Source: a virus. From it: 64,000 nt of DNA. The DNA is taken from positions 1 through 64,000 of the IMG/VR virus record IMGVR_UViG_3300027499_000006, one strand, 5' to 3'. A model generated the notes under the pieces. The model searched no databases. It worked only from the letters and a program-made list of their open reading frames with translations, and had not been told where the DNA came from. Below, piece after piece: positions 5,063-51,922 of this stretch (position 1 is the stretch's first letter; each line of letters starts with the position of its first letter). Made by a program: the position numbers and the translations under genes.

Positions 5063-6661
5063 GTGGGAGTTTTTCGTAGGGAGTCGTCGGCCAGCGCGGT
5101 AGCCTACTCCGCGCCCCGCCCGCTGACGGCAGCCGCAGCCCAAATCAAGCTCAATGATAAAGCCGAAGCAGAGCAGTTTAAATCCAGACGTGCTTCTTCT
5201 GTTAGTCAGTGGCAACAGGAAGCCTGGGAATACTACGACGCAATCGGCGAAATTAAGTATGCTTTCGGTCTTGTTAGCTCGGTTATCTCTCGAGTTCGTC
5301 TGTACGCAGCTATCATTGAAGACCCCGCCGCTTCCCCCGTTTCTGTTAAAGATTCCGACAGCCTAGACCAGTCCGTTATTGATGCCAGCCAACGAGCCCT
5401 TGCCCGTCTTGACTCTGCTTATGGCGGGCTTCCTGGTCTTCTCCGTGACGCAGCTCTTAACATCCTTGTTGCAGGAGAGTGCTACCTAGTTCAGACTCCT
5501 GAGCGTATTGGTTCTGGACTTCCTGAGACATGGGATGTTAGGTCCGTCGACGAACTCAAAATTGACGGTCGGGGACAGTACATTATTTCTACTCGCCGAG
5601 ACCTTAATGGAAACTCTGCCGTTTCGGTACCCAAAAACTCTTTCGTTGGGCGTATTTGGCGTGCGCACCCACGCTACTCCGATGAGCCAGATTCTTCTCT
5701 GCGCGGTATTTTGGACCTGTGCTCCGAGCTTCTGCTCCTCAACCGTACCTTTCGCGCTACGGCACGTTCTCGCCTTAACGCAGGTGCGCTCTACCTACCA
5801 GACGGTCTTTCCGTGTCTGCGGGCCCAGAGGAAGACCTTCAGTTCGCTGATGAGATTGACATTACCAACCCCACTCCAGAGGAGGAAGAAGACGAATTTG
5901 AAGAGCAACTGATTGACGCGATGACTGCTCCGATTTCGGACGAGTCTTCCGCTTCGGCAGTTGTTCCTCTTATCATTCGTGGTCCCGCTGAACTTGGTGA
6001 CAAGATTAAGCAGTTTAAGTTTGAGCGTTCTTTTGACCCAGCACTTGCTGAGCGGTCAGACCGTGTGCTTGAGCGAATTCTTCAGGGACTTGATGTTCCT
6101 AAGGATGTTGTTACAGGTCTCGCCAACGTTCGCTACTCCAACGCAATTCAGATTGATGAGAGCCTCTACAAAGCTCACATTGAGCCTCTGCTTTTGTTGC
6201 TCTCTGATGCACTTACAGTTGTCTACTTCCGTCCCTACCTGCGCTCCCTCGATTTCGATGAGGCCGACATTGCACGGTTGGTTGTGTGGTACGACCCGAG
6301 TGCTATCTCTACGCGCAATGACCGCGCTGAAGATGCAGATTCTGGGTTTGACAAGATGGCGGTTAGCTACGCAACGTGGCGACACGCTCACGGATTCTCT
6401 GACTCAGACGCCCCCAGCCCGACAGAACTGGCTATGAGGTTAATGATTCAAAAGGGCATGATTACGCCCGAGCTCACGGAGGCAATGCTTGCCACTTTTG
6501 CACCAGAAGCAATGGAAGCCGTGCGCCAAGGTGCTCAGGCTTCTAGCTCAGCTCCTGTTCCGCCTGAGGTTGAGCAGTTGCTTGAGGGGCAACAGCAGTC
6601 CCCAGAGCCCACGGAAGAAGTTTCCGAAGAACCCCCAATTCCCCTTGCCGAGCCTCAATAA
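5063..6661 (+). CDS. Portal protein
   Basis: 532 residues from GTG 5063, preceded by GAGGTAG. Portal-like features are the early helical region after SQWQQEAWEYYDAIGEIKYAF, the central DLCSELLLLNRTFRATARSRL helix, and RILQGLDVPKDVVTGLANVRYSNAIQIDESLYKAHIEP (shown here only as the landmark, residues about 335-370), the typical stem/clip neighbourhood of phage portals. It ends in an acidic Pro/Glu-rich tail (PPIPLAEPQ). It forms the dodecameric DNA channel at the head vertex. Location between terL and head maturation genes is canonical. No catalytic motif is expected. Confidence 0.88.
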   Translation: MGVFRRESSASAVAYSAPRPLTAAAAQIKLNDKAEAEQFKSRRASSVSQWQQEAWEYYDAIGEIKYAFGLVSSVISRVRLYAAIIEDPAASPVSVKDSDSLDQSVIDASQRALARLDSAYGGLPGLLRDAALNILVAGECYLVQTPERIGSGLPETWDVRSVDELKIDGRGQYIISTRRDLNGNSAVSVPKNSFVGRIWRAHPRYSDEPDSSLRGILDLCSELLLLNRTFRATARSRLNAGALYLPDGLSVSAGPEEDLQFADEIDITNPTPEEEEDEFEEQLIDAMTAPISDESSASAVVPLIIRGPAELGDKIKQFKFERSFDPALAERSDRVLERILQGLDVPKDVVTGLANVRYSNAIQIDESLYKAHIEPLLLLLSDALTVVYFRPYLRSLDFDEADIARLVVWYDPSAISTRNDRAEDADSGFDKMAVSYATWRHAHGFSDSDAPSPTELAMRLMIQKGMITPELTEAMLATFAPEAMEAVRQGAQASSSAPVPPEVEQLLEGQQQSPEPTEEVSEEPPIPLAEPQ

Positions 6662-6672
6662 AGGATGATTTT

Positions 6673-7212
6673 GTGTCTGACCTAAATTTTATTATTGATA
6701 CCCAGTCAAATGAAGATACTCCAGTATCTTTGCGAGCCCTCCCGCACAAGAGTCTTATTGAGACTTTACATAAAGAGGCGGATAAATTTAACGCCAAGCT
6801 TCCTCTGGCAAGGCGTGTTCCTGCCAAGACAGTTGAAGCGATTATCTCCCGAGAAGAGACTCACCCGAATGCAATGAGGGCCTTGGGGCAGTATTTCAAC
6901 ACTATTGAGAATCCACAAACACCAGCGCCAACTACCCACCGAGACCTTCTCCCCAAGAACCACCCTTTGTCCACTAAGTGGGTTTCGCAGTTTTCTGTGC
7001 GGGAGAGCGTTGCCACATACTTTGAGTCTGACACAAGGGTTGAAGACTATGAGACACGCGCCCTCATTGCTTCGGCGCTTTCCTACGAGCCAGACTCTGC
7101 TCAGCGACACTTCTATAACGAAGTTATACTTGCTAAGACTAATAATGTCTCTCTACTTGCCAATCTTGACGAAGCTGATAAGATGATTGAAGAGAGGAAG
7201 GCAAGCAAGTGA
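6673..7212 (+). CDS. Hypothetical head-region protein (179 aa)
   Basis: 179 residues from GTG 6673, with AAAGGA ten bases upstream. Predominantly helical and charged: KSLIETLHKEADKFNAKLP, then a Pro/Thr linker (NPQTPAPTTHRDLLPKNHP), then a second helical part ending KMIEERKASK. No known motif, signal peptide or membrane segment. It follows the portal by 11 bases and overlaps the next gene (GTGA), so it is part of the portal-protease transcript. A scaffold or portal-associated role is conceivable only from position. Confidence 0.6.
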   Translation: MSDLNFIIDTQSNEDTPVSLRALPHKSLIETLHKEADKFNAKLPLARRVPAKTVEAIISREETHPNAMRALGQYFNTIENPQTPAPTTHRDLLPKNHPLSTKWVSQFSVRESVATYFESDTRVEDYETRALIASALSYEPDSAQRHFYNEVILAKTNNVSLLANLDEADKMIEERKASK

Positions 7213-7430: not shown

Positions 7431-7450
7431 GTACTAGAATTGTCTAGTAC
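7431..7450. repeat. Perfect inverted repeat before the giant gene
   Basis: GTACTAGA (7431-7438) and TCTAGTAC (7443-7450) form a perfect eight-base-pair inverted repeat with a four-base centre. It lies between the 68-residue gene and the giant polyprotein. It overlaps a possible TTG start (7440) and ends 12 bases before the ribosome site used by GTG 7479. It could be an operator, or an mRNA hairpin controlling the giant gene. Confidence 0.6.
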
Positions 7451-7478
7451 ACATTTTGACTCAGGAAAGAAGCACGCG

Positions 7479-10400
7479 GTGAGCCTAAGCCACAACCTGT
7501 CGGAACAAGCACTACAGGCTCTCATTGCGGCTATTAATCCTTATGCGGGCGGAAACTCTAGGCTTGCCCGCTCTCTCCGTGCACGTCTCCAGCCCCGAGA
7601 CAGCAAGGGTCGATGGATTCGCACAGGTGTTAACTTTGCCGTAGATTTTAAGGTTAACGGTAAGGTCTATAACGCCAATCCTCGCTCTGTAGGCCCATCT
7701 TCCCGCGAGGGCTTTATTCAGGTTTATGTTCCTAAGGGTGACCCCAATATTCCTGAAGGGTTTTATGAGGTCGAGTCTGGCAAGGGCGAAGTAGTTATAG
7801 CAGTTCTTGATGGTCCATCCGTTGCTTCATCAAAAACTTCTATTACAGACAAAAACGTTATTGACATCAACTCCGTTAATCGTTCCGATGCCCCCGAGGG
7901 TTGGGACTTCAAACCCACCGAAGACGGACAAAACCGTTGGGTTACTCAAGATGGAAAAGTTGAAATTGTTGAGAACGCTGAGACTGGCAAGGTTGACCTT
8001 ATTGAAGACGGGGAGAAGCTTTCCGAGCATGACCAAGTTGCTCTTGCCTTCGCCGAGTCTGACAGACGAGACGTCGAACAATCTGTAGTAGCCAGCTCCA
8101 AAAAAGTTGTTGCCCGTCTCCGCAAAAATATTGAAGACGCTCCACCAGCGGAGAAAGAGGCTGCCAAAGAAATCCTCGACCGAGTTCTCTTTGATGACCC
8201 AGACTACGAAGAAACTCTGCAACTAAACGACTCTAACCCTCCAAACCCAGAGAGTATGGGTGAAGGTGTAGAAATATCAGCTGAAGACCTTAGGCGTATG
8301 CGTCTAAGTCCCATTACTGGTCAGCATTTGGATGAAGACGGTAACTTCACCCCTGAAAGACAAGAACTGCATAACCAGATAATTCTTGAGGCACTAGAGG
8401 GCACAACACCTGTCGAAGAGCCTGTTCAGAATATGAATGGTGGCGGACCTGCATCTGGTAAAGGCACAATGACTAGGGGAGCCAATAAAAGGCTCACTAA
8501 CTACGACGAAAACTCTGTTCTTGTTGACCCAGATGAAGTTAAAAACAAATTTCCCGAGGTCCAAGCGGCTATTGAGCGCATCAGAAATGGTACAGCCACC
8601 GAACAAGATTTTAATTGGGCAGGTCTTAGCCACGAGGAGAGTAGCCATGTGGCCAAGAGAATCCACCTCGCAGGCCTAGAACGTCACCACAACATCATCT
8701 ATGACGGAACTGGTGATGGCGGAGTAAAGAGCGTCCGCGAAAAAGTTAAGCTCGCACGGGATAACGGCTATAAGACAGTAAATGCCAACTACCTCTATCT
8801 AGAGCCCGACGAAGGTATGAGTCGAGCTAAAGAGAGGGAAAAGGAAAACTTCCGCAGGGTACCGGAGACCGTCCTTAAAAACACTTACAACACTATTTCT
8901 ACTATATTCCCAGAACTTCTCAAAGATAATATTTTTGACACTGTTCGTCTTTTCGACAACAACCAAGAACGAGGCGTAGCTGCGAAACTTATTCTGGAGC
9001 AAAAAGACGGCGAAACTGAAGTTATAGACCAAGACTCCTACAATCGTTTCTTACGAGCAAAAGCTTCTGATGACAAGCAACCGCCCGAAAAGCCAGTGGC
9101 AGAACTCCCTGAAGAGGGTGCCCTCCCCGAAGACTTTCGACCCAAAATCAGTGCTGATGAGGTCACCCCTGGAACAGCTGTTATTGATACAGATTTTGAC
9201 GTCCAGAAGATTGGAACGTTCGTTGATGTCAACGACCCTCTAGTTCCTTCTCAACTATTCCACGTCACAACTAATCGCGAAGGTGTTTCTAACTCGCAGA
9301 GACTCCTCACAACTACCACTGATGGTAAAGGTTTTGGCGGAGCAGACCGCAATGTTGTTTCCTTCTCTGGAACTAAAGAACGAGCCCTTCAGATGCACGC
9401 CGACCTTGAGGACTACGTCCGACTGAGGCAAGCACAAAGCAACACCGAAATTTTTGATGCAGTTAACGATTTTTCTGCTAAGTACGACATCCCGAAACAG
9501 CGCAAGGACGCTGTACTTAAGTCTTTGACGCAAGAGAAAGATTTGGCTGACGGACCCACTCGACACAACGCAATGACTCAGCTATTCAACGAGCGCGAGA
9601 CGGCTACAGGTATTCCAAATCCAGTCATTCTTGACAATGACTCTTGGGAGACCATGTCCCCAGACAACATCGCTCTTCTTAGTGTTCCTAAGGACCGCGT
9701 TGAGTCTACTGGTGCGGCTGTCTCTTATATACAAAGTGGAGCATCCCCCGAGGAATTCCGAGTTCACGGAAGTGTCCCCGTTAAAAGCTGTACAAATCCT
9801 TCACCACGTACTTTTGCAGTTGGCGACCCCTCAGACCCCTGCGAAGACGACTTTGAGGACATCGACTCCCTCACCGACCCCGACGAGAATGATGTTACTG
9901 TTGCTCCTCTTGAGAGCCTCACCGAACCTCAACTGAAAACAGAAATGTTCGAGTTGCAGGAAAGAATCCAAGCCCTAGAGTCTCGTGCAGGTGACGAATC
10001 TGTTGACAAAGAGATTCAACGTACCACAGAACGATATGCTGAGCTGGAAACTGAACTTGGCAAACGTCAAAACAACAAACAAGTTGACAATAAGGCTACC
10101 GAAACGGTAGAGTCTGTTACCACAAGAATTAATTCTATTGATGCTCAGATTAGTCGTCGGATGGACCGAGGCCAAGGCTATAAAGACTTGGAAGAGCGCC
10201 AACAAAAACTTATTGCAAAAAGAGAAGCACTCCAGAAAGGGGAGCAAGTAGATGACAGACAAACTGGACAAGGAACTGACGCAGGAGCAGAAGGAACAGT
10301 TCCTCGCGGTGTGGCAGGAGCGCCGTCCCGAAGTGCTCGAGTGGAGCGACGAGGAGATTCTCTACGCGATGTTTCTGGGAATGTAGTTGCCACTAGGATT

Positions 10401-13400
10401 GCCGAGCCCACGAATGCTGAAGCGCTTCGTGAAGAGGGCGTCAGGGTTGTAGAACTATTTGAAGTAGATAAAGACCAAGCTGAGTTTTTTAGGGACTCTT
10501 TCGAGTTGGCAAGAAATTCCAGCACTTATGGGTCATCGGTAACGCTCCACGACTTGGACTACTACCAACAAGACGATGTAAGAATGTTCCTCACCCAAGA
10601 TGGCTTGGGCGGAATTGTTCTTAATGGCGATGAGATTGTTACGGGATTCATGCACCCCGAGGCATCTGACCGTGGACAGGGTGCCATTGTTTCTATGGTT
10701 TCCAACATGGTTGACCTCGGTGGGAGGCGTCTAGATGCTTATGACACAGTTCTCCCTGGTTTCTATGCAGAGGCTGGGTTCCGTCCTGTTGCTCGCCTCC
10801 GTTGGGACGACCAGTTTGCACCCGATGACTGGGATTATGACCTCTATGACAGATGGAACGGCGGACGCCCAGATATCGTCTTTATGACTTTCGACCCAGA
10901 CCGTTTTGGCTCCGAGTATGACCAGTCTGAGGGTCAGTATGTTGATAGCTACGAAACGGGTCCTGTTGCTCAACAGCGTGCTTTAGAGGGGTTCGATGAG
11001 TCCAAGTGGGTTCAAATTCGCGAACAAAGACGTGAGCGTGCTCGAGCTCGACGGATGGAGACTCAGCAACAGAATGACGCCCTCAAGCAAGAGGACGGTC
11101 TACTTGTTGGTGAAGTTCCGAAGAATGACAATGACAAGCCAAAAAATCAGGCTCTCATTCTTTCCCCCATTGGACAGGTTGTTGAGGTTACCAGCTCTAA
11201 TGGACGCAAAATGCGTTTCATTAAAATTGGACGTGACACTTGGAAGCGTGCGGACAAGCCTGACGACCACACACGGTACCGCTCCCATCAGATTCGTCGG
11301 GACAAAATGGAGTACGTCAAGACTACAGAGTCAGATGTCCCGTCCCTTGACTTACCTCCACGCTATTACAACTCTTTCCGTCCTGTTCCGTACTCTATCC
11401 CGAGGGGCTCCTCCGACGAAGAGCTTAAGCGCCTGCGTTCTATGTACGAACGACAAGCAGACACCACAGACAACTCAATTAGTGTCCAACGAGCAGAAGC
11501 CACCGTAAAATTTATCGACCGCCTTAGCGCAAGACGCGAGGGACGTACCGCTACACCACGCCAAAACACCACCGACCGCGCTAATGCGTCTGGTTCTAGG
11601 GGGCGCAGACAGAATGCCCCACTTCTGGAGAATAATGACCCAGAGTCTGGCTCCACAGAAGCACACGTCCCCACCAAGCCTACCCCCGATGAGAATGGTG
11701 TAACCGACAACCCAGAGCTTCTCGCAGATATATATGACCGATACACCCTTACCACTGTGTACCTCCAAGCTCTTACTGCGGGTAGGGACTCTACAATGAT
11801 GACATTTAGGACGGAGGCAGAAAAAGGAGTTCCCTACACTGGAACCCAAGCTAGTGTTCCGATTACTGCCATCCGAGATGCTCTACAGCTTCAAGGTGTT
11901 GACACCAACAGATTAGTTGAAAATGCAAGAATCATTAGAGAAAATCGCGCTTCTGTCCGCGACCGTAATTCCGTCACCCCATCAGATATTCAGGAGTTCA
12001 CTGATAGTCAGAAGCTAATGGAAAACCTGTGGGGCTCATTGAGACAGCTTGAAGAAAACCTTAGGGTGGCCTATATCACTGAGCGGGTTGATTCGCCAAG
12101 AATTACATCTCTCTCGCAGCGTGTAGAAGCACTACGCGCAAGAATTGCTCGCCTTGAGGAGAGGGGGTTCCGCCTAACGGTGCCACCCGAGGCTACATTA
12201 GTGGAGGGGTTTAGCTGGGACGACAACACCGAGCCAGATATCTACCGTCCAGAGCTTATTATGGACGCCCTCAAAGCCCGCTATCCAGATGCAAAACTCA
12301 ACGATGATGGTGAGCTTATTGTTGGGGAGGCTGAGCACACTGTTGGAGGTAATAGATTTAGGTATGAGGCAGTCATTACTCGGACAGATGACGAGATGTT
12401 CTACGTTTATATTCGAGAGACTAACCTATCGGACGAAAACCCAGCAACTAGGTCTCGCTCTTTTAGATTTGATGTAATGCGTCATTCAGCTAGAGCTATC
12501 AACAACCAAGCAGCAAAAGCCCGAGAAAAAATTTTTAACACAGCCTCAGGCTCTAATATTCATTCTTGGTTTAACGACCCTCGGAGGCGCCGCGAAGGAC
12601 GCGAGCCCAAGTTTGATGTCCCAGATGAGCAAGGTATGCCCCACCACGTTCGTGACCAAGTTCTTACCCGAGAAGCTCTTCGGAAGATTGAAGAGGCCAC
12701 GAGTGAAGAGGGCATCACCGAAGAGATGATTGGTGTTCTCTATAACTACATTCGTAGTTTTGGAAACGACACTGGAGTTATGCAGGCCTTGTACTCCACA
12801 TTTAACTTGGATGTGCCCACCCTTAACCGCTTCGTGGACGCAGTCAATCAGCACATTTACGAGCGTGATGGTCTTAACAGCTTCTCCCTTTGGGAATCTG
12901 ACAATGGCACACCTCTTGCAGAGGGTGACCTTGTCACGTACACGGGAAATGAACGGCAACGAGGATACGAAAATCTGAGCGGGAAGCGATTTATAGTCAG
13001 AATTCGCGGACTTGAGCACCGCTCTGATGGGTACTCCTACACAGACTATCTTCAAGTTCAAGCTGTTGATGAGAACAACAATCCTCTGCCGGGTACTGAT
13101 GGTAATTTCCGTTGGGTCTCTTCGCACAACCTCAGGTTGGATAGGACATCAGGGAACACTGATGGCTCAGAACGCACAGGGGTGGGTGCGATATCTATGC
13201 CACTTCCCGTTCTCACTACTCGCGCTGGTAACCGCTATGCTGGGCAGGGGCGTCTCAACGAAGTCGCTCCATATGTTTCAGAGTATGACCGAGACACTCT
13301 AGCTAGCCCCACCGTTGACATTGACGGCATTCAATACCCCGTCCAAGCTTCTCGCCAGAGCTTGCTTGGTCCCGACCTTGCAAATGTCATTGCACGTCCT

Positions 13401-16139
13401 CGCCAAGTACAACAGGGTGACTTCCTCATGCACTTTGACCCCGAGACTGGCTCTCGCCGTCTGGTTGAAGTTGTTAACACTGAAACACTAGAAAACGGAA
13501 ATATTCGTCTTACGACCGTTGAGCCTGTTAACCGCACATCTGCCAAGGTTTCCCAGACAGAGTTTGGTCCAGACGAGTTGTCGCTCGACATCTATCGTTA
13601 CGACCCCAACTTCACTCCTGACGAGGAAACCCTTACCACCGCCCACGTTGGAAGAATCGCTGACGCGGTTCGCGGTGTCAACCTAGATGAGCTCTCTCGC
13701 GAGGCGAGAAGTACCATTGCTCGACTTCTTAGTTATGACCTAGATAGCGAAGACCTCACCATCAACGAGTACCGCGAGGCACTCGCAGAACTTCTCAATA
13801 GCAGGACTGATGAGGGTCTTATAGGTCAAGTATCTGTTGCTGACGCTCGAAGGGCACTAGATGTTGCCATGAACCGAGGACTTCCAACCCAAGACGCCCG
13901 CAATAACATACAAGCTGTCTCGAACGCTGGCACTCAACGTGGGGCACAAATTGGCGCGAACACAGGGCAGACTACCACTCCCACTGGTCCGGTCCCCGTA
14001 TCTAGTGCTAGTAGACCTCGGAATACTGTTGCGGGCTACGAGAACGGCCCCTATGGACCAGAAGACGGAACTCTAGATGGTATGGATAGAGATGCGTTTG
14101 AAGCGCTTTTACGTATGCCCGATGGGGTAGCAAAAACAAAGGCTTTCAATAAACTAGTTAAAACAGTCCTTTTCGCTAAAATCTACGGAACTCAGTTTGC
14201 ACTTGAATTTGTGCCAAGGAGCCAGTGGCGCAATGGCTTGTCTCTAAACAGGGGAGAGCTGGGTTGGCAGGCCAATATAGTAGACCCAGCGACTGGGCAG
14301 AAAGTTGGTTTTGTACATAGAACATACAGATTTGCAGCTAATCCCATAGACCCATCTGGTGACGACGTAATTGATGTCCACCACGACTATGTTTGGTTCA
14401 CTGATAGTTCTGCTACTGGGACTGGGTTTGCCACTGATTTCTACTACGTTTCAGACAACTTCTACGAGTCTACTGGCGTGGATATAAACACCATAGGAAC
14501 TGCCAGAGATGGCTCTTATACTTGGGGACTCGCCAACTTCACTTGGAATTCCACAGTCAATATCCACAACATTATGCGTAAGCTCTACGACAAAGCCGAT
14601 GAATACGAGCCTAGCGACCCAGTCACGGCCACTAAGTTGAGAGACTTGGCCGTCCGTCTCGGTGCCCCTGCGGGAACTGAGAGCCTCACTGGACCAGCTC
14701 GGGGGCGAGCTCTTATCGATGCTCAATACAATCTAGACTTGCGGTACGTTCAGACTTCCCCCGACTACCCAGACCCCGTCGACATTTCAAGTCTTCTAGA
14801 CCCCAATGACGCTCAGAAGAGAGCCGAGCACGAGCGGGCGCAGGCGCTACTACCAGAGGGCCAGAGAACAAGATATAAAACTCTAGGTAGAGAAATTATG
14901 GAGGGGACAGGTTGGTCTGGTATTCGGTACCTTAATCCAGCGCTAGACCCGAGGCCAGACAATAGGAAAAACAAAAAGTCCGCTCAGCAAATCGCGATAG
15001 AAGAGTCTGCTAAGAAGAAAGACGAGGCCGAAAAGACTGTAGCAGTTGAGAAGCTCAAAAAAGAAACTGAAGATGCTGAAGAGGCTCAAAAGAGCAAGTC
15101 TGGTCGGCCTCAAGGGAGGACAATCACCAGTCTTAGCGACGTAACTAACGCCGCACCTGGTGACGTCATTAATGTTACTGAACCGGGATATGAGGCAGTA
15201 TACGTAAGGCAGGAAGATGGCACGTGGGACGCGATTTTCTACGGAAGTGATTCTAACCCCTTTAGAAGTGCCTACGACGATGACGATTTAGACATTGTTG
15301 ACGGGTTCAGTGGTGACATTATGTCAGCACAGATTTTTACTACTCCTGAAGCGCAAGAGTATTTCTCCCAGTATGCGGCGGGAACTCTAAAAGTAGATAA
15401 CCCCACAAGGGAGACTGTAGAGAAAGCTCTAAGAGATGGTGACCTTTTCACGATGGAAGCCATCTACAGAGGAAATTTAACAAACAACGGTAAGTTTGGA
15501 AGAGACAATTTTACTCTTAGAGTAAACTCCTCTCGAATCGAAAGCCAAGGCACAGACGACGACGTTTACGAGGTCGGAGGGGATATCCTCAATGAGAATG
15601 GTCAAAGGATAGGACCTTTTAGGCGAAAAATACGCATGAGGCCTGACGGTAAACTCGAGATATACCACGGCATACTAAAAATTGAGGATGACAGGTACAA
15701 GAGAAGTGGTTTTGGTAAGGACTTTACAAAACAGAGTGAAGCCTTGTATAAGCAAATGGGCGTCGATTTAATTAGATTACACTCAGCGTGGGATGGAAGT
15801 TACTTCTGGGCTATGCAAGACTACGAGTGGGACTTGGAACATGATAATGGTAGCAAATACTCTATTTTGAGTGGGGTCCCTGGTGCGCTCCAAGAAGAAC
15901 TAGACCGTGCAAGAACTAGTGACCCACCGAGACCTAAAGATGTCGCGAAGCTTGAAGCCTTGATAGATAGGATGGCTGGCTTGGATATCGACGACCCTAA
16001 CTTCCCTTCTCCCCGAGAAATTGCTATGCTGAAGAGTCAGGACCCATCTCTCAATGACGACGGAAATGGTGGAGACGGTGCCTGGATGCAAAAAATTCTG
16101 AAGAACACTGGGTGGCATGGAAGAAAAGAGCTTAGCTAA
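7479..16139 (+). CDS. Giant polyvalent head-region protein (about 2,886 aa)
   Basis: GTG 7479 is preferred because AGGAAAGA (7463-7470) precedes it. TTG 7440 would add 13 residues without a ribosome site. An N-terminal QPRDSKGRW motif is followed by several regions: a zeta-toxin-like kinase (about residues 285-500, P-loop NGGGPASGKGT, then VLVDPDEV and IIYDGTGD); an ADP-ribosyltransferase-like region (about 590-765, LFHVTTNREG, NVVSFSG, FRVHGSVPV); a coiled coil (820-920); an acetyltransferase-like region (about 1020-1155, GFYAEAGFRPV); and two related acetyltransferase-like C-terminal copies (about 2227-2372 and 2654-2807, sharing a GxGF, then FYxxxGVD or LYKQMGVD, then DGSYxW pattern). Encoded between portal and prohead protease, where MuF-type packaged effectors lie. 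It is probably carried in the capsid and injected, but delivery is inference. Domain calls are from motifs only. Confidence 0.8.
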   Translation: MSLSHNLSEQALQALIAAINPYAGGNSRLARSLRARLQPRDSKGRWIRTGVNFAVDFKVNGKVYNANPRSVGPSSREGFIQVYVPKGDPNIPEGFYEVESGKGEVVIAVLDGPSVASSKTSITDKNVIDINSVNRSDAPEGWDFKPTEDGQNRWVTQDGKVEIVENAETGKVDLIEDGEKLSEHDQVALAFAESDRRDVEQSVVASSKKVVARLRKNIEDAPPAEKEAAKEILDRVLFDDPDYEETLQLNDSNPPNPESMGEGVEISAEDLRRMRLSPITGQHLDEDGNFTPERQELHNQIILEALEGTTPVEEPVQNMNGGGPASGKGTMTRGANKRLTNYDENSVLVDPDEVKNKFPEVQAAIERIRNGTATEQDFNWAGLSHEESSHVAKRIHLAGLERHHNIIYDGTGDGGVKSVREKVKLARDNGYKTVNANYLYLEPDEGMSRAKEREKENFRRVPETVLKNTYNTISTIFPELLKDNIFDTVRLFDNNQERGVAAKLILEQKDGETEVIDQDSYNRFLRAKASDDKQPPEKPVAELPEEGALPEDFRPKISADEVTPGTAVIDTDFDVQKIGTFVDVNDPLVPSQLFHVTTNREGVSNSQRLLTTTTDGKGFGGADRNVVSFSGTKERALQMHADLEDYVRLRQAQSNTEIFDAVNDFSAKYDIPKQRKDAVLKSLTQEKDLADGPTRHNAMTQLFNERETATGIPNPVILDNDSWETMSPDNIALLSVPKDRVESTGAAVSYIQSGASPEEFRVHGSVPVKSCTNPSPRTFAVGDPSDPCEDDFEDIDSLTDPDENDVTVAPLESLTEPQLKTEMFELQERIQALESRAGDESVDKEIQRTTERYAELETELGKRQNNKQVDNKATETVESVTTRINSIDAQISRRMDRGQGYKDLEERQQKLIAKREALQKGEQVDDRQTGQGTDAGAEGTVPRGVAGAPSRSARVERRGDSLRDVSGNVVATRIAEPTNAEALREEGVRVVELFEVDKDQAEFFRDSFELARNSSTYGSSVTLHDLDYYQQDDVRMFLTQDGLGGIVLNGDEIVTGFMHPEASDRGQGAIVSMVSNMVDLGGRRLDAYDTVLPGFYAEAGFRPVARLRWDDQFAPDDWDYDLYDRWNGGRPDIVFMTFDPDRFGSEYDQSEGQYVDSYETGPVAQQRALEGFDESKWVQIREQRRERARARRMETQQQNDALKQEDGLLVGEVPKNDNDKPKNQALILSPIGQVVEVTSSNGRKMRFIKIGRDTWKRADKPDDHTRYRSHQIRRDKMEYVKTTESDVPSLDLPPRYYNSFRPVPYSIPRGSSDEELKRLRSMYERQADTTDNSISVQRAEATVKFIDRLSARREGRTATPRQNTTDRANASGSRGRRQNAPLLENNDPESGSTEAHVPTKPTPDENGVTDNPELLADIYDRYTLTTVYLQALTAGRDSTMMTFRTEAEKGVPYTGTQASVPITAIRDALQLQGVDTNRLVENARIIRENRASVRDRNSVTPSDIQEFTDSQKLMENLWGSLRQLEENLRVAYITERVDSPRITSLSQRVEALRARIARLEERGFRLTVPPEATLVEGFSWDDNTEPDIYRPELIMDALKARYPDAKLNDDGELIVGEAEHTVGGNRFRYEAVITRTDDEMFYVYIRETNLSDENPATRSRSFRFDVMRHSARAINNQAAKAREKIFNTASGSNIHSWFNDPRRRREGREPKFDVPDEQGMPHHVRDQVLTREALRKIEEATSEEGITEEMIGVLYNYIRSFGNDTGVMQALYSTFNLDVPTLNRFVDAVNQHIYERDGLNSFSLWESDNGTPLAEGDLVTYTGNERQRGYENLSGKRFIVRIRGLEHRSDGYSYTDYLQVQAVDENNNPLPGTDGNFRWVSSHNLRLDRTSGNTDGSERTGVGAISMPLPVLTTRAGNRYAGQGRLNEVAPYVSEYDRDTLASPTVDIDGIQYPVQASRQSLLGPDLANVIARPRQVQQGDFLMHFDPETGSRRLVEVVNTETLENGNIRLTTVEPVNRTSAKVSQTEFGPDELSLDIYRYDPNFTPDEETLTTAHVGRIADAVRGVNLDELSREARSTIARLLSYDLDSEDLTINEYREALAELLNSRTDEGLIGQVSVADARRALDVAMNRGLPTQDARNNIQAVSNAGTQRGAQIGANTGQTTTPTGPVPVSSASRPRNTVAGYENGPYGPEDGTLDGMDRDAFEALLRMPDGVAKTKAFNKLVKTVLFAKIYGTQFALEFVPRSQWRNGLSLNRGELGWQANIVDPATGQKVGFVHRTYRFAANPIDPSGDDVIDVHHDYVWFTDSSATGTGFATDFYYVSDNFYESTGVDINTIGTARDGSYTWGLANFTWNSTVNIHNIMRKLYDKADEYEPSDPVTATKLRDLAVRLGAPAGTESLTGPARGRALIDAQYNLDLRYVQTSPDYPDPVDISSLLDPNDAQKRAEHERAQALLPEGQRTRYKTLGREIMEGTGWSGIRYLNPALDPRPDNRKNKKSAQQIAIEESAKKKDEAEKTVAVEKLKKETEDAEEAQKSKSGRPQGRTITSLSDVTNAAPGDVINVTEPGYEAVYVRQEDGTWDAIFYGSDSNPFRSAYDDDDLDIVDGFSGDIMSAQIFTTPEAQEYFSQYAAGTLKVDNPTRETVEKALRDGDLFTMEAIYRGNLTNNGKFGRDNFTLRVNSSRIESQGTDDDVYEVGGDILNENGQRIGPFRRKIRMRPDGKLEIYHGILKIEDDRYKRSGFGKDFTKQSEALYKQMGVDLIRLHSAWDGSYFWAMQDYEWDLEHDNGSKYSILSGVPGALQEELDRARTSDPPRPKDVAKLEALIDRMAGLDIDDPNFPSPREIAMLKSQDPSLNDDGNGGDGAWMQKILKNTGWHGRKELS

Positions 16140-17314: not shown

Positions 17315-20300
17315 GTGACAGAATTTATCGGCTCTTCTGGGCCACTAATGCTATACACGCAGGGCGCGTGGGGTGTTGTTGTTGACTCAGAAGTTGGTTT
17401 GGTTGTTGCCTCTGGCGCTTCTGGCCTTCTCACGACTTCTCGGAGATGGACAACCCAAGATGTTAAGCCAACTGGGGAAACTGATGAGATTGCCGAGGCT
17501 AGCCTATCTGGGCTTGTTGCCTCTGGTAAAGGCTCGAGTAGTAAGTACACTATCCCCAAGTCAGTACAGGCCGAGGCGAAGAAAGCTCTTGAGTGGCGCA
17601 AGAAGGAGGGTAGGGGAGGAACCGATGTTGGTCTCAATACTGCTCGGACTCTTGCTAAAGGTGGTCAAATTGGAATTGAAAAGATTCGCCACATCGCCAA
17701 GTACTTTCCTCGTCACGAGGTAGATAAAAGAGGTCGTGGTTACCGCCCTGGCGATGATGGGTTCCCTAGTAATGGTCGTATTGCGTGGGCTTTGTGGGGT
17801 GGTGACACTGGCTGGCGTTGGGCTAGGACTATCGTCGAACGCGAAGAGAAGAAGGCTCTAAACGCCTCAGGATACGACCTGAAGAATTTCCCCACCACAG
17901 CTGTCGATGCTGATGAATTCACATACGACGACTCTCCAGACTACATGTCAGAGTTCCTCGCACGGATGCGCCTCGACGGTTCGGGTATGGACCGTCTATA
18001 CCGAGTTGACTCGGAGAACAACTGTTTTGTGTGGGATGACGGCCAATGGGACGACCTCGGTATTTCTGGTGGAAACGTCTGGGACTACGACGAAGAACTC
18101 GACCAAGGCGTCCAAGATTCCGTAGAAAAGACTCACTTTGTCATTGACCCAGAGTCCGCAATTATTGTCGCTGCTCGCCTATATGTGAACCCCAGCACTC
18201 CCGTTACCGTTGAGGACATCGACGAATACGAAGCCAAGCTAGCCGTCGCAGCCATCGAGGACGAAGACTGGGACTTCATTGACCGTACTCTACTTTCCGA
18301 TGGCTCTTTCCAGTCTCAGGAAGAGGAAGACGGAGACTACACCCCCGAAGAGCGTGCAGAAAATGCTTCCAAGCAAGTTCGTAATAAAGAGGGAAAATTT
18401 GCAAAAACGGGTTCTCGGGTTGTGGTGGGTAATGACCCCGCAAGGGGTTCTGGGGTTATCAAAAGAATTGAACCAGAGACTCAGAGTGTTGTTGTTGAGC
18501 TCGATGGTGGTAGAGAGATTACGGTCCCCGCAAAAACAGTGGAAGACGCCAAAAACTACCCTGCTCAGACACAAGAGGTTGCTCCCGCAGAGAAGAAAAC
18601 TGTAGACACTTCTGGAATTCTCGGTGAAAGACGTTCCGCAGTAAAGAAGTCCAAGGCCAAACTATCTAAAGACATCCCTACAATTGAGCCTAAAGAACTC
18701 AGAAACATTATCTCCAACTATCCTGCTTGGGTTAAGGAGCAGAGAGATAACAAGATTGTAGATGAAAAGAGTCCTGCTACTAGGCCTAGCCCCTATGAGC
18801 ACCCCCTTCTTCAGAACTGGCTAAGGAAGAGAAGTGGCTCAGATAAATATCCAATGAGCTCTTGGTCTAATCCAATTACAGCTGCTGCGGACGAGAAGCT
18901 TGTTAGTCCAGACACTAGTGATGTTCAACCTGTTTATATGGCCGTTGTGGATGCAGACGACCCGAGGGCAGTGTTGGATTTGATTAGTCTTGTACCAGCA
19001 AGCACCGTGTCCAATTCTCCGATGGTCTACACCCGTGAGCAGGGTAAGTGGGTTCGTGACCCTAAAACTCTTACTGACCTCAATTCTCCTACTCCTCCCC
19101 CCGTTGTGCCACTTGACTCGGAGGAAACTCTTAATGATGTTCTGAAGCAGGTTGACTTTGCCCAAGGCGTGACAGCCTCTATCGCACTCACTGTTTTGTA
19201 TGGAAACGAGCCGATTGTTTCTTCCATCAAGGAAAACATCTCGAAAGCTCTCCGCAAGTACTGGATTGCTGGTGCTGGGGCCAAGAAGATTCAGTGGGGT
19301 GTTGGTGGCGACTGGTACCGATGTGTCCGTCAGCTTGCCCCTTTCATGGGGGTCAGAGCAAAGAGCTATTGCCAGATGCTCCACAAGACCGCTTTGGGCT
19401 ACTACACCTCGACACATGCTCGCATGGAGAGGGCCAAGCTTGGGCAATTCGAGTTGGAAGAAGAAGAGCTTGCCGTTGAATTTACCGAAGTTACTCAATC
19501 CGACATGCACACCCCCCTCGAAAAGATTCTTTCTCAGAAGGGGGAGGACGAAGACTTTGACATTGATGAGGACATCAAGATTCTTCTGTCCGATGTTGAG
19601 GCTTTAGATTACGAGGATTACGCCCTAATCGCAGCTGGGGGTGCTGACCGCAACCGTGGTGGAGCTGAGAACCTTCGTCGCTACTGGACTATCGGTAAGG
19701 GTGGTCTCAAGATTCGTTGGGGTACACCTGGTGACTGGACTCGATGCGCTCGTCAACTCCGCAAATACATGGGCGCCCGTGCACAGGGCTATTGTGCCCT
19801 CCGTCACAAAGAAATGAACGGGTTCTGGCCTGGGGATAAGAAAAACAGGCGGAAGTTTTCTTTTGATGACACTTATATTCTTAAAGATGAAGAGCAACTA
19901 ATCTCAGACTCTTTCTTCTCTGCACTATCTGACATGAGTCTCGAAGAGATTATTTTGGCTTCTGTTCACCATGAGACTGGAGACTTGGGCTACTCCCCTG
20001 AGGGAGAAGAAGAAGTGTTCATTACCGAGGATGGAGAGACATGTCCTCCATCTACTCAAGATATTCAACTTAATCTCGCCAATCGACAAAATGCAATTGA
20101 CAATGTTGGTTACGGCCCACTAAACCCAGCTCAAGCAAATGACGTCTTCTGGCAAGACAAAGCTGAACGGTGGAACACCACTGTTAGAGAAGCAAAATCA
20201 GCACGGTGTGGGAATTGCGTCTTCTTCATTCGTACCCCAGACATGCTCAACTGCATTGAAAAGGGAATCGGTCTTGACCAAGAGGCAGAAGGCTCCGTAG

Positions 20301-23300
20301 AGGCTGGGGAGCTCGGCTATTGCAACGCTCTTGACTTTAAGTGCGCCTCTGAGCGAACCTGTAACGCTTGGGCATCTGGTGGCCCAGTTACTGCTGGTGG
20401 AGACTACAAAGTTGGAGACGACGTAAACGTTGATGTCGAAGAGTTCTTCGCAAGGCCGATGTACGAACTCCCTGAGGGACTAAAAGAGTATGTCGAAGAG
20501 GTAGAGCAAAGTGACGAGTATGAAATTATGCTTGACGACCTTGTTCCTACTCAACGTACCGTAAACATGGCTCGCGTTAAAGACGCTATGGACTCCGACA
20601 AGCCAATCCAAGTTTGGGTTAATGAAGACGGTGAGCCTGAAATTGTGAATGGCCACCACCGCTCTGTGGCAAAAAGAATGAGTGGCGAAGACACTATTAT
20701 GGCTAAAGTTTACGACTTTAGGGGGTTTGTTGCTACTGCTGGCTCAAAGCCTGCTCCCAAGAAAGAGCGAATTAAGGGCTCAAAGCGAAACAAGTCAGGG
20801 TCTGGAAAAACTGGTGCTGGAGTAACTTTCACTCAGAAGATTGAAGATGCTCTGGCAACCAAAGCTACCAAGCACAATGAAACTGCCAAGCAGGGTAGAA
20901 AAACCAACATCAGAACTTTGAAGGCTGTCTACCGTAGAGGGGCAGGAGCATTTTCAACTTCGCACCGCCCCGACCAGAACCGCAACAGCTGGGCCATGGC
21001 TCGAGTAAACGCATTCTTGCACCTACTTAAGACTGGTACCCCCAAGAACAGTAAGTACATTACTGACAATGACCTTCTTCCCGCTAGCCACCCAAAATCC
21101 ACAAAAAGCGCGTCAAGTGCTTTAGTTTCTGCTGGCTATAGCGGTCAGGATGGGGCATCCTTCAGTATTCCTCTTGTCATTCCTGAAGAAGTCGAGTCTG
21201 GAGATGGCAGAAAGTTTAATAAGGGTGCTATTGAAATAAGGGAGCTTCCACTTCCACTCTTGTGGCAGATTGAAACTGGCAATGGCCACGATGGTTCTGT
21301 TGTTGTTGGTCGGATTGACCGCATGGAACAAACCGAAGAAGGTATTGGAAACGCCTACGGTGTCTTTGATTCTGGGGTGTACGGGAGTGAAGCTGAGCGT
21401 CTAGTTCGCGAGGGCTTCCTCCGTGGTGTTTCTGCTGATATGGACAAGTTTGAAGCAACAGAAGAAGTTGTCACTGAAGCAAGTGACGACGATGATAACA
21501 AGAAAATCAAAAAAGAAAAAATTATTATTAAGTCGGCTCGTGTAATGGCCGTTACAATAGTACCTAAGCCCGCTTTTCAAGAGTGCAAAATTTTCCTTGA
21601 AGAACCCAAGGACCAACCCCAGGAGGATAACATGATTCCCGACGGAATCTATATTGAAGACATTGAGCCCGCTGAGGCAGAGGCAGTTGTTGCTTCTGGC
21701 CTTATTGCTGGGTCCATCCCCGTTGCACCACCCAAGTCGTGGTTTACTAACCCACAGCTTAAGCAACCGACACCCCTTACCGTCACCGACGAGGGCCGTG
21801 TCTATGGACACATTGCAGCGTGGGATGTTGACCACATTGGTATGGTTTCAGGCACTCGCCCCCCACGTAGCCGTAGTAACTATTCCTACTTTCACACAGG
21901 GGTCCTCCGCACTGAAGAGGGTGTTGATGTTCCTGTTGGTCAGATTACTCTTGCTGGTGGACACGCTGACATTCGCGCAAGCGCATCCGAGGCCGTCAAG
22001 CACTACGACGACACCGCAAGCGCAGCAATTGATGTTCACGCTGGTGAGGACGCTTACGGTATTTGGGTAGCTGGTTCGCTCCGCCCAGGTGTCACCCCCG
22101 AGCAGGTTCGTGCCCTCCGCGCATCTGCTCCGTCTGGTGACTGGCGTCCAATTCGTGGCAACCTCGAGCTTGTTGCAGTGTGTCAGGTTAATGTTCCTGG
22201 GTTCCCCATTGCTCGCGCAATGGTTGCCTCTGGACAGGTTACAGCGCTGATTGCGGCTGGTGCCTCGGTTCTGGCTAAGATGCGACACAACCCCATGCAG
22301 GAGCTCAATGAGCGTCTATCTAAGCTCGAGCAGAAGGAGAAGGCTGGCCTTATCGCAGCAGCACAGGAAGCTCGCGCTAAGTTCCAAGCTCTTCGCCCAT
22401 CACAGGAAGAGCCTGTTGTTGCAGATGCCTTCTATCAGGAAGTTCAGCCAAGTCTTGTCCCGATGCTAGAGAAGACTCTGGCTGATGTCGTATCCTTTAC
22501 GTTTATCGCTCAGGGGTACCACTGGAACGTCAAGGGCAAGAACTTCCCTCAGTATCACGAGTTTTTCGGAGAAATTTACGAAGAGGTTCAGGGCTCGATT
22601 GACCCCCTCGCTGAGAACATTCTTAAGCTCGGTTACGACGCTCCCATGGGCATCCTGGCTTACGCCGAGATGAGTGAGCTTTCTGCTTCTGGCACAAAGG
22701 ACTCTTCCTGTGAAGCAATGGCTTATGACCTGTACTTTGCTAACAACAAAGTCTTGGACGACTATAAAGAAGCTTTCGCAACAGCAGATTCCATGAACGA
22801 ACAGGGCGTTGCTGATTTCCTTGCGGGACGCATTGACATGCACCAGAAATGGGCGTGGCAGTTGAAGGCTTCTTCAATGCCCGAGAAGATGCGCAAAGAG
22901 AGCTACGAGGACGCTCTCGAGCCGATGGACATGATGCGTGAATACGTTGATGAGGTCCCCGAGGTTGCCATGATTTCTAGTGGAGCCGAGCACAACTTTG
23001 AAGCTTTTAGCGCCCTTACTGAACTGGCTAAGTTCACTAAGGAGGAGCGCGAAGAGCTTGCCAAAGAGGGCAAGGCTATGCCAGACGGTTCCTACCCCAT
23101 CAGGAATGAAGAAGACCTGAAGAATGCAGTGTCAACTTATGGACTTGGTAAGTCTGCAAAGAAGGACATTAAAGCTCACATTATTAAGCGTGCCAAGGAG
23201 CTCAACAAAGAAGACCTCATCCCTGAGAATTGGATGGGCAAGAAGGACTTCTCCGTTGAGGACATGCGCAACCGTATTGCCGAGCTTAGTGCCAATATGG

Positions 23301-23308
23301 AGAAGTAG
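17315..23308 (+). CDS. Prohead protease fused to ParB-like, Dps-like and accessory domains (1,997 aa)
   Basis: GTG 17315 start. Domains in order: KKALEWRKKEGRGGTDVGL to WALWGGDTGWRWA (83-178), a conserved phage virion module; a QVRNKEGKFAKTG motif with SH3-like strands (355-410); two tandem copies of a module with KIxWGxxGDWxRCxRQL (645-706, 786-842); a Cys-rich patch (962-1022, CGNCVFF, CASERTCNAW); a ParB/sulfiredoxin-like nuclease region with GHHRSVAKR (1072-1138); a TKHNETAK/YRRGAGAFSTSHRP module (1179-1262); the maturation protease (about 1271-1428) with H1325 (GNGHDGS) and S1373 (RGVSAD), spaced as in HK97-type proteases; a post-protease domain (1464-1650); a Dps-like domain (1706-1855); and a DUF6582-like tail (EGKAMPDGSYPI, 1907-1978). 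It matures the capsid. Most domains probably remain inside the head. Confidence 0.85.
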   Translation: MTEFIGSSGPLMLYTQGAWGVVVDSEVGLVVASGASGLLTTSRRWTTQDVKPTGETDEIAEASLSGLVASGKGSSSKYTIPKSVQAEAKKALEWRKKEGRGGTDVGLNTARTLAKGGQIGIEKIRHIAKYFPRHEVDKRGRGYRPGDDGFPSNGRIAWALWGGDTGWRWARTIVEREEKKALNASGYDLKNFPTTAVDADEFTYDDSPDYMSEFLARMRLDGSGMDRLYRVDSENNCFVWDDGQWDDLGISGGNVWDYDEELDQGVQDSVEKTHFVIDPESAIIVAARLYVNPSTPVTVEDIDEYEAKLAVAAIEDEDWDFIDRTLLSDGSFQSQEEEDGDYTPEERAENASKQVRNKEGKFAKTGSRVVVGNDPARGSGVIKRIEPETQSVVVELDGGREITVPAKTVEDAKNYPAQTQEVAPAEKKTVDTSGILGERRSAVKKSKAKLSKDIPTIEPKELRNIISNYPAWVKEQRDNKIVDEKSPATRPSPYEHPLLQNWLRKRSGSDKYPMSSWSNPITAAADEKLVSPDTSDVQPVYMAVVDADDPRAVLDLISLVPASTVSNSPMVYTREQGKWVRDPKTLTDLNSPTPPPVVPLDSEETLNDVLKQVDFAQGVTASIALTVLYGNEPIVSSIKENISKALRKYWIAGAGAKKIQWGVGGDWYRCVRQLAPFMGVRAKSYCQMLHKTALGYYTSTHARMERAKLGQFELEEEELAVEFTEVTQSDMHTPLEKILSQKGEDEDFDIDEDIKILLSDVEALDYEDYALIAAGGADRNRGGAENLRRYWTIGKGGLKIRWGTPGDWTRCARQLRKYMGARAQGYCALRHKEMNGFWPGDKKNRRKFSFDDTYILKDEEQLISDSFFSALSDMSLEEIILASVHHETGDLGYSPEGEEEVFITEDGETCPPSTQDIQLNLANRQNAIDNVGYGPLNPAQANDVFWQDKAERWNTTVREAKSARCGNCVFFIRTPDMLNCIEKGIGLDQEAEGSVEAGELGYCNALDFKCASERTCNAWASGGPVTAGGDYKVGDDVNVDVEEFFARPMYELPEGLKEYVEEVEQSDEYEIMLDDLVPTQRTVNMARVKDAMDSDKPIQVWVNEDGEPEIVNGHHRSVAKRMSGEDTIMAKVYDFRGFVATAGSKPAPKKERIKGSKRNKSGSGKTGAGVTFTQKIEDALATKATKHNETAKQGRKTNIRTLKAVYRRGAGAFSTSHRPDQNRNSWAMARVNAFLHLLKTGTPKNSKYITDNDLLPASHPKSTKSASSALVSAGYSGQDGASFSIPLVIPEEVESGDGRKFNKGAIEIRELPLPLLWQIETGNGHDGSVVVGRIDRMEQTEEGIGNAYGVFDSGVYGSEAERLVREGFLRGVSADMDKFEATEEVVTEASDDDDNKKIKKEKIIIKSARVMAVTIVPKPAFQECKIFLEEPKDQPQEDNMIPDGIYIEDIEPAEAEAVVASGLIAGSIPVAPPKSWFTNPQLKQPTPLTVTDEGRVYGHIAAWDVDHIGMVSGTRPPRSRSNYSYFHTGVLRTEEGVDVPVGQITLAGGHADIRASASEAVKHYDDTASAAIDVHAGEDAYGIWVAGSLRPGVTPEQVRALRASAPSGDWRPIRGNLELVAVCQVNVPGFPIARAMVASGQVTALIAAGASVLAKMRHNPMQELNERLSKLEQKEKAGLIAAAQEARAKFQALRPSQEEPVVADAFYQEVQPSLVPMLEKTLADVVSFTFIAQGYHWNVKGKNFPQYHEFFGEIYEEVQGSIDPLAENILKLGYDAPMGILAYAEMSELSASGTKDSSCEAMAYDLYFANNKVLDDYKEAFATADSMNEQGVADFLAGRIDMHQKWAWQLKASSMPEKMRKESYEDALEPMDMMREYVDEVPEVAMISSGAEHNFEAFSALTELAKFTKEEREELAKEGKAMPDGSYPIRNEEDLKNAVSTYGLGKSAKKDIKAHIIKRAKELNKEDLIPENWMGKKDFSVEDMRNRIAELSANMEK
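22430..22880 (+). other. Dps/ferritin-like domain inside the protease polyprotein
   Basis: Residues about 1706-1855 of the protease fusion. H1736-W-N-V opens the signature. H1748 is 12 residues later, D1763 27 later and E1767 31 later. These spacings equal those of the E. coli Dps ferroxidase ligands H51, H63, D78 and E82. The fifth ligand, D67, falls on G1752 with E1753 beside it. A late helix IDMHQKWAWQLKAS resembles the Dps C-terminal helix. Dps proteins bind DNA and detoxify iron and peroxide, so here it may protect packaged or incoming phage DNA. Confidence 0.85.
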
Positions 23309-24012
23309 TGCCTGATAACCTCAAAGAGTTTATTGCTTCTGAAGACCTGCGCAAGCTGGTCGAAAAAGTCGACCCATCCATCAAAGATGAGGCTGAAAAA
23401 GAGGCAGATAAGCTTGAGAAAGAGGCAGAAGAGCTAGAGAAGATTGATGGTCAAGCTCCCTCAGTTGACACTAAAGAACAAGAATACGACAAAGAAGGTC
23501 GTAGGCGCTACACCGCCAAAACTCAGCCACGTGACGCACAAGGCAAATTTAGATTAGTTCTTGCAAGAATTAAACAGAATCTTGGGACATCTGGAAACCA
23601 AGGTGTTCTAGAAAAAATTGAACAGGCTGAAAATCTTGACAATGCTGGTGACTACGCTGGCGCTGTGGAGGCGTCTTCTGACCTCATTAGCACAGTGGAC
23701 CGCCTCGACTCTGGGGCTCTTAATGCAAAGTCTGTGGAAAATGTTCGACTCGCCACATCAGATTTGGGCAAGGTAATTTCTAACTTACCTCTTCCTTTTG
23801 ATAATCAAGCTCAAAAGGTTCGGTATAGCGATTTACCCGCTGCTCTAAAGACTCTCACCAAGAAATTAATTTCTCGTGTTGAGGAAAAAATCGGAGCGGA
23901 AGACGCCGAGATTGCAACAAAAGAACTACGCGACTTTATGTCAGGAGCTGACTTCTATAGTCAAGCAGAGGTTTCTGCACAATTAAATAGAATGCTCAGA
24001 TTACTAACTTAA
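23308..24012 (+). CDS. Charged helical head protein, candidate scaffold (234 aa)
   Basis: 234 residues from GTG 23308, sharing a base with the protease stop (TAGTG). The N terminus is a highly charged helix (EAEKEADKLEKEAEELEKID), then RYTAKTQPRDAQGKFRLVLA, a version of the QPRDxxGKF motif also found near the N termini of both giant proteins. The rest is helical (VLEKIEQAENLDNAGDYAGA) and ends SAQLNRMLRLLT. Charged helical proteins between protease and major capsid are often scaffolds or internal proteins. Translational coupling to the protease fits this, but the family is not identified. Confidence 0.6.
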   Translation: MPDNLKEFIASEDLRKLVEKVDPSIKDEAEKEADKLEKEAEELEKIDGQAPSVDTKEQEYDKEGRRRYTAKTQPRDAQGKFRLVLARIKQNLGTSGNQGVLEKIEQAENLDNAGDYAGAVEASSDLISTVDRLDSGALNAKSVENVRLATSDLGKVISNLPLPFDNQAQKVRYSDLPAALKTLTKKLISRVEEKIGAEDAEIATKELRDFMSGADFYSQAEVSAQLNRMLRLLT

Positions 24013-51907: not shown

Positions 51908-51922
51908 TTTATAGGAGATAAA

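What the first reader, a model, noticed from the sequence alone, without database searches (positions are those of the whole stretch)
7479..16139. Giant 2,886-residue putative packaged effector with several toxin-like enzyme domains
One chain between portal and protease carries a zeta-kinase-like P-loop region, an ADP-ribosyltransferase-like region, and three acetyltransferase-like regions. This is the position of MuF-like head proteins that enter the cell with DNA. It occupies 8.7 kb of the window. Such a combination may reprogram the host at injection, or act as anti-defence equipment.
Basis: partly seen in the sequence, partly recalled or inferred. Interest (0 to 1): 0.85.

Follow-up and report, generated by a model that had tools for sequence, protein, structure and literature searches.

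The report
Giant phage polyvalent effector protein
This virus of bacteria carries one intact 2,886-residue protein, encoded among its head genes, that strings together a zeta-toxin-like kinase and acetyltransferase-like domains and is most likely packed in the virus particle and injected to reprogram the host; it belongs to a known class ("polyvalent proteins"), but to a lineage with its own unnamed leader domain.

Summary
The ORF is real: GTG 7479 to 16139, 2,886 aa, intact, conserved in relatives and under purifying selection (omega 0.13 over the comparable part). A Zeta_toxin kinase domain is certain (Pfam 1.9e-18). One GNAT acetyltransferase fold is well supported (AlphaFold pLDDT 93-97, canonical GNAT order). 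Two further C-terminal GNAT-like units are moderately supported. The claimed ADP-ribosyltransferase has suitable motifs by eye but no profile or structural support: unproven. However, the 55% relative L004 lacks that block and carries a bona fide ART at its C-terminus. No MuF domain is present, but the zeta, GNAT1 and C-terminal units each occur elsewhere fused to head proteins (MuF, VG15, Phage_min_cap2). Best read as a phage polyvalent protein (Iyer et al. 2017): packaged, then injected with DNA. New here: its N-terminal ~150-aa domain heads otherwise largely unrelated giants (open frame up to ~7,670 codons) in at least 93 viral loci, and includes a QxRDxxGKF/W motif. In the 82.6-kb record that motif occurs in only two other ORFs, the protease fusion and the following 234-aa gene. 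I propose it as a head-packaging tag. Packaging and injection are inferred, not shown.

The parts
7463..7469 (+). Shine-Dalgarno-like AGGAAAG, 9 nt before GTG 7479
   Evidence: sequence
7479..16139 (+). giant polyvalent protein gene, 2,886 aa
   Evidence: ORF; relatives; dN/dS
7479..8003 (+). N-terminal leader domain (aa 1-175), proposed head-packaging module; shared with at least 93 viral loci
7590..7616 (+). QPRDSKGRW motif (aa 38-46), form shared with protease fusion and 234-aa protein
7501..8250 (+). segment exchanged relative to L003: 62-70% DNA identity inside a ~90% identical background
   Evidence: dS 1.2-2.4 here vs about 0.2-0.6 elsewhere
8331..9068 (+). Zeta-toxin-like kinase domain (aa 285-530)
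   Evidence: Pfam PF06414 1.9e-18; alignment with cyanophage PSS2
8439..8468 (+). Walker A GGGPASGKGT (aa 321-330)
9162..9878 (+). ART-like block (aa 562-800), absent from relative L004; motifs LFHVTT (aa 593), VSFS (aa 627), EEFRVHG (aa 758)
   Evidence: sequence by eye; no profile or fold support
9879..10328 (+). coiled-coil linker (aa 801-950), relaxed constraint (omega 0.42)
10332..10904 (+). GNAT1 acetyltransferase-fold domain (aa 952-1142), phrog_2563
   Evidence: AlphaFold pLDDT 93-97; alignment; 382 viral loci; weak GCN5 match
12159..12968 (+). conserved domain of unknown function (aa 1561-1830), weakly shared with Cece/A3Wally giants
14166..14678 (+). C1 GNAT-like unit (aa 2230-2400)
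   Evidence: homologous to C2 (about 25%, BLAST 1e-8 to 1e-9)
15426..16058 (+). C2 GNAT-like unit (aa 2650-2860)
   Evidence: AlphaFold pLDDT 76-86, bbbb-a-b-a-b order; many Foldseek GNAT matches, weak E-values; homologous to Jera gp5 C-terminus
5063..6661 (+). portal protein
   Evidence: phrog_776 8.5e-103
6673..7212 (+). 179-aa protein; in many other family members this sequence is fused to the N-terminus of the giant protein
17315..23308 (+). 1,997-aa head-maturation-protease fusion with C-terminal ferritin/Dps-like domain and a QVRNKEGKF motif (18374-18400)
23308..24012 (+). 234-aa protein before the major capsid gene, with QPRDAQGKF motif (23524-23550); scaffold-like position
24151..26187 (+). 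major capsid protein
   Evidence: phrog_777 2.5e-78

Best explanation
A phage polyvalent protein: a late-expressed giant polypeptide recruited into the prohead through its N-terminal domain, packaged with the genome and released into the host at DNA entry, where its enzyme modules act at once: a zeta-type kinase (probably phosphorylating a nucleotide sugar or another small molecule), one to three GNAT acetyltransferases, and possibly an ADP-ribosyltransferase. The modules form an exchangeable rack. The leader domain, with its QxRDxxGKF/W motif shared with the protease fusion and the 234-aa protein, is proposed as the head-localisation tag, perhaps removed by the prohead protease. Shown: the frame, selection, zeta domain, GNAT1 fold, head-gene context, modular gain and loss, shared motif. 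Inferred: packaging, injection, activities, targets, cleavage.
For: Zeta Pfam 1.9e-18 with intact Walker A. GNAT1 pLDDT 93-97. C2 GNAT order. Best viral fold match is a 'Large polyvalent protein associated domain-containing protein' (7.9e-15). Domains fused to head proteins elsewhere: PSS2 Phage_Mu_F + Zeta; Caron gp4 VG15 + GNAT1; Jera gp5 Phage_min_cap2 + C2-type unit; DC33 has LPD22 + ART-PolyVal in the protein that also carries GNAT1. Leader domain in 93 loci on largely unrelated giants; relatives carry MPTase-PolyVal, ArdC-N, RNase_T, GNATs, ARTs. Same portal-to-protease position in Cece and DSL-LC01, and the same slot in A3Wally and Pumpernickel. Motif in 17 of 469 non-giant ORFs vs 0.2 in shuffles, all 1-5 ORFs downstream. 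Purifying selection in each enzyme-like block, omega 0.06-0.10. A tape measure is separately encoded.
Against: No virion proteomics. The window protein itself has no LPD, MPTase, ART-PolyVal or MuF Pfam match. ART unproven. The leader domain is the part replaced by recombination relative to L003 although portal and 179-aa gene are about 90% identical, which is not what a simple fixed docking interface predicts. The downstream ORF set in the motif test is small.
Confidence: 0.75

Rival explanations
1. It is mainly a structural or core protein of the prohead (scaffold/core or portal plug), and the enzyme-like domains are degenerate folds used as spacers or DNA-binding surfaces.
For: Head-gene position; 179-aa neighbour fused to it in relatives; coiled-coil stretches; C1/C2 and GNAT1 are divergent, with weak PDB matches.
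Against: Zeta Walker A and conserved kinase motifs are intact across cyanophage and window; enzyme blocks are the most constrained; content of the giants varies freely while the leader is kept; L004 has R, STT and ExE motifs of a complete ART.
Confidence: 0.15
2. It is a toxin or host-takeover protein made in the infected cell and acting there late, not delivered by the virion.
For: Zeta domains are classic intracellular toxins (general knowledge); no proteomics exist.
Against: Encoded inside the head cluster at a fixed place in several phages; homologous domains are fused to capsid proteins; leader motif shared with protease fusion and 234-aa protein.
Confidence: 0.08
3. It is a MuF-type capsid protein with an effector tail.
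For: Position after portal; PSS2 homologue has MuF plus zeta.
Against: No Phage_Mu_F, VG15 or Phage_min_cap2 match in the window protein; the N-terminus is a different domain.
Confidence: 0.05

Closest known systems
Polyvalent proteins of phages and conjugative elements (Iyer et al. 2017, PMC5512222)
   Same: Large, several disparate enzyme domains in one chain, encoded by virion genes; zeta, GNAT and ART are all listed domains; closest viral fold match carries a 'large polyvalent protein associated domain' name.
   Different: No LPD, MPTase or ART-PolyVal domain found in this protein; headed by a domain with no Pfam or PHROG match and associated with the QxRDxxGKF motif.
Giant proteins of Microbacterium phages Cece gp68, A3Wally gp85, Pumpernickel gp82 and of Actinomycetia phage DSL-LC01 (annotated hypothetical)
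   Same: Same leader domain and same place after the portal gene.
   Different: The rest of the chain is unrelated except a weak match in the middle.
Cyanophage PSS2 minor head protein
   Same: Zeta domain 37% identical; annotated as a head protein.
   Different: Has a MuF domain instead of the leader.
T4 Alt/IP and SPN3US ejection proteins (PMC7411985)
   Same: Model for head-packaged, injected proteins with N-terminal targeting propeptide (T4 10-20 aa; SPN3US 111-130 aa).
   Different: No sequence similarity shown; cleavage not tested here.

Membership tests
Polyvalent protein (phage type) | two or more domains of disparate activity in one chain | tested here: met
   zeta kinase plus GNAT1
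Polyvalent protein (phage type) | encoded near late virion genes | tested here: met
   portal, protease fusion, MCP around it
Polyvalent protein (phage type) | domains shared with the described polyvalent network | tested here: met
   GNAT1 in DC33 with LPD22 and ART-PolyVal; fold match 7.9e-15. Typical but not required MPTase/LPD domains: none in this protein
Polyvalent protein (phage type) | injected with DNA | not testable with these tools
   needs virion proteomics; only predicted for most of the class
Zeta_toxin (PF06414) | profile match over curated cut-off with Walker A | tested here: met
   67.1 bits vs 22.3; GGGPASGKGT
Zeta_toxin (PF06414) | phosphorylation of UDP-N-acetylglucosamine | not testable with these tools
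   assay needed
Epsilon-zeta toxin-antitoxin | neighbouring epsilon antitoxin | tested here: inconclusive
   the 179-aa neighbour has no Pfam match and is a leader partner in relatives; no search made for an epsilon gene elsewhere
ADP-ribosyltransferase | ART fold with H-[Y/S]-E or R-S-E site | tested here: inconclusive
   motifs by eye; no profile hit; the model is below pLDDT 50 outside a helical insert
GNAT acetyltransferase, GNAT1 | GNAT fold topology | tested here: met
   b1-a1-a2-b2-b3-b4-a3-b5-a4-b6-b7 at pLDDT 93-97; only weak PDB match to GCN5; no Pfam hit; acetyl-CoA loop divergent
GNAT acetyltransferase, C1 and C2 | GNAT fold topology | tested here: inconclusive
   C2 element order and many GNAT Foldseek hits (ICL2 C-domain, HPA2, Naa50, GNA1) at E 0.01-0.3; C1 by homology only
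MuF (Phage_Mu_F) | MuF domain | tested here: not met

The most novel reading that the evidence does not exclude
The leader domain with its QxRDxxGKF/W motif is a dedicated, previously undescribed head-packaging tag (and possible protease substrate) shared by giant effectors, the maturation-protease fusion and a scaffold-like protein in a large group of phages, some of them actinobacterial; it lets these viruses load interchangeable multi-enzyme payloads of about 600 to 7,600 residues.
Probability: 0.4. Interest if true: 0.72.

Novelty: new variant of a known kind. Interest (0 to 1): 0.55.

Why it matters
If true, it gives a sequence tag by which packaged effectors of many uncultured phages can be recognised, a list of their payloads, and cultured phages (Cece, A3Wally, Pumpernickel) in which packaging and injection can be tested directly. 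The presence of an ART-like block here and of a different ART elsewhere in the chain of a close relative suggests that a function, not a sequence, may be kept.

Tried and rejected
Pfam, PHROGs and NCBIfam on the ART block at lax E-values: no ART hit. Its relatives: only the two closest contigs, nothing in plasmids, one chance hit in phages. The leader domain gave no relative among GTDB genomes, so no host or prophage is named. Profile comparison of the C2 alignment against the GNAT1 alignment was not significant. PDB phmmer on the whole chain and on zeta gave only chance-level hits plus 1gvn zeta at E 0.05. Tape-measure identity rejected: separate tape measure gene. I looked for a T4/SPN3US-like xxE cleavage site shared with the MCP; too degenerate to decide. 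Some early scripts and references failed on coordinates or file handling and were corrected.

Full report
Observation. The frame 7440-16139 is open for 2,899 codons. The window is part of an 82,589-base IMG/VR virus record. A 100% identical contig, an 88% identical partial one (L003) and a 55% identical full-length one (L004/L005, 2,852 aa) keep the same gene. Between window and L003 dN/dS is 0.13 overall and 0.06-0.10 in the zeta, ART-like and GNAT1 blocks, against 0.42 in the coiled-coil linker. The protein is real and constrained.

Domains. Numbering is from GTG 7479. (1) aa 1-175: a domain with no Pfam or PHROG match. (2) aa 285-530: Zeta_toxin, 1.9e-18, with the Walker A, D-x-D-E, DGTGD and lid-like R/P positions aligned with cyanophage PSS2. 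LFHVTT, VSFS and EEFRVHG are in the right order for an H-S-E type site, but this is reading by eye; no library, no relative and no confident model supports it. (4) aa 952-1142: predicted at pLDDT 93-97 with the canonical GNAT order; family phrog_2563, relatives in 382 viral loci. (5) aa 2230-2400 and 2650-2860: two units homologous to each other; the second is predicted with the GNAT core order at pLDDT 76-86, and many of its weak Foldseek matches are GNAT enzymes. So zeta is certain, GNAT1 well supported, the other two GNATs moderate, ART open.

Modularity. L004 lacks the ART-like block cleanly and instead has, beyond the point where the window protein ends, a Pfam ADPrib_exo_Tox domain (6.1e-10) with R, STT and ExE motifs in order, matching Alt-like and protease-fused ART families. 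Each other block is found elsewhere on different proteins: zeta with Phage_Mu_F in PSS2, GNAT1 with VG15 in Caron gp4, the C-terminal unit with Phage_min_cap2 in Jera gp5, and GNAT1 in DC33's 3,125-aa protein that carries LPD22 and ART-PolyVal. Three kinds of window domain are thus independently attached to bona fide head proteins in other phages. This is the strongest indirect evidence for virion association.

The leader domain. Its motif-rich start, GGNSRxARxxRARxQxRDRxGRW, is found in at least 93 viral contigs, at the N-terminus or about 175 aa into complete ORFs from about 600 aa to more than 3,678 aa. One record has an open frame of 7,671 codons with three ART matches; its leader ORF start and ART matches lie in the same reading frame by coordinates. 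The rest of these giants falls into clades with little in common. Their Pfam domains include MPTase-PolyVal, ArdC-N, RNase_T, UvrD, NUDIX, GNATs and ARTs; one has six GNAT-like P-loop repeats. In Cece, A3Wally, Pumpernickel and DSL-LC01 the gene sits at the same place after the portal gene. The 179-aa gene upstream of the window protein is homologous to the 175-aa N-terminal extension of many of the others, so the two probably work together.

Shared motif. [QK]xR[DN]x(1,2)G[KRQ][FWY] occurs in 17 of 469 distinct non-giant ORFs around these genes against 0.2 in shuffled sequences. All 17 lie one to five ORFs downstream; none of 377 upstream ORFs has it. By position and sequence they are protease fusions and the small gene before the capsid gene. 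In the whole 82.6-kb record the motif is in three ORFs only: the giant, the protease fusion and the 234-aa gene. The downstream set is small and some of the ORFs are related to each other, so the count is not of independent events. I infer a head-assembly signal, by analogy with the capsid targeting sequences of T4 Alt/IP proteins and the long N-terminal propeptides of SPN3US ejection proteins (PMC7411985). Whether it is a docking site, a cleavage site or something else is unknown.

A complication. Window and L003 are about 90% identical along the DNA, but from about 7500 to 8250, that is the leader and following linker, identity falls to 62-70% with sharp edges, and dS rises to 2.4 and 1.2. 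The leader has been exchanged as a cassette while portal and the 179-aa gene were not. A simple docking partner would be expected to change with it, so the partner may be elsewhere (protease fusion and scaffold-like gene are not covered in L003), or the leader has another role.

Comparison with the known. Iyer et al. (PMC5512222) describe phage polyvalent proteins as large multi-domain proteins of disparate activities encoded by late virion genes and predicted to be injected; ART is their commonest protein-modifying domain, GNATs of one family typically neighbour ARTs in the same chain, and zeta kinases occur fused to MuF. The window protein meets the testable features. It has no MuF, LPD or MPTase domain. 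The best structural match among viral proteins is one named for a large polyvalent protein associated domain. I file it as a new variant of that class; the leader and its motif are what is new.

Noticed in passing
17315-23308, aa 1718-1852: The head-maturation-protease gene product (1,997 aa) ends in a ferritin/Dps-like domain (Pfam 9.8e-16, phrog_3636 7.2e-23), an unexpected DNA-protection-type domain on a head protein.
   Followed up: partly
6673-7212 (aa 92) and 17315-23308 (aa 1254): Motif LLPxxHPxS is shared by the 179-aa protein and the protease fusion, and 137 of 2,421 ORFs in the fetched loci have it (0 in shuffles).
   Followed up: partly
L075 (record G002): Related giant with an open frame of 7,671 codons and three ADPrib_exo_Tox matches.
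   Followed up: partly
L050:1162-10092: Relative with six GNAT-like P-loop repeats in one 2,976-aa chain.
   Followed up: partly
L023, L019, L090, L145, L050: Some genomes carry two neighbouring giants with the same leader domain, suggesting duplicated payload slots.
   Followed up: no
L008 (PQ492659.1): Limnohabitans phage DC33 is filed under Inoviridae although its 39-kb record encodes a 3,125-aa polyvalent protein with LPD22 and ART-PolyVal; the taxonomy line looks wrong.
   Followed up: no
50001-52000: GC skew jumps to 0.325, far above the rest of the window; cause not examined.
   Followed up: no
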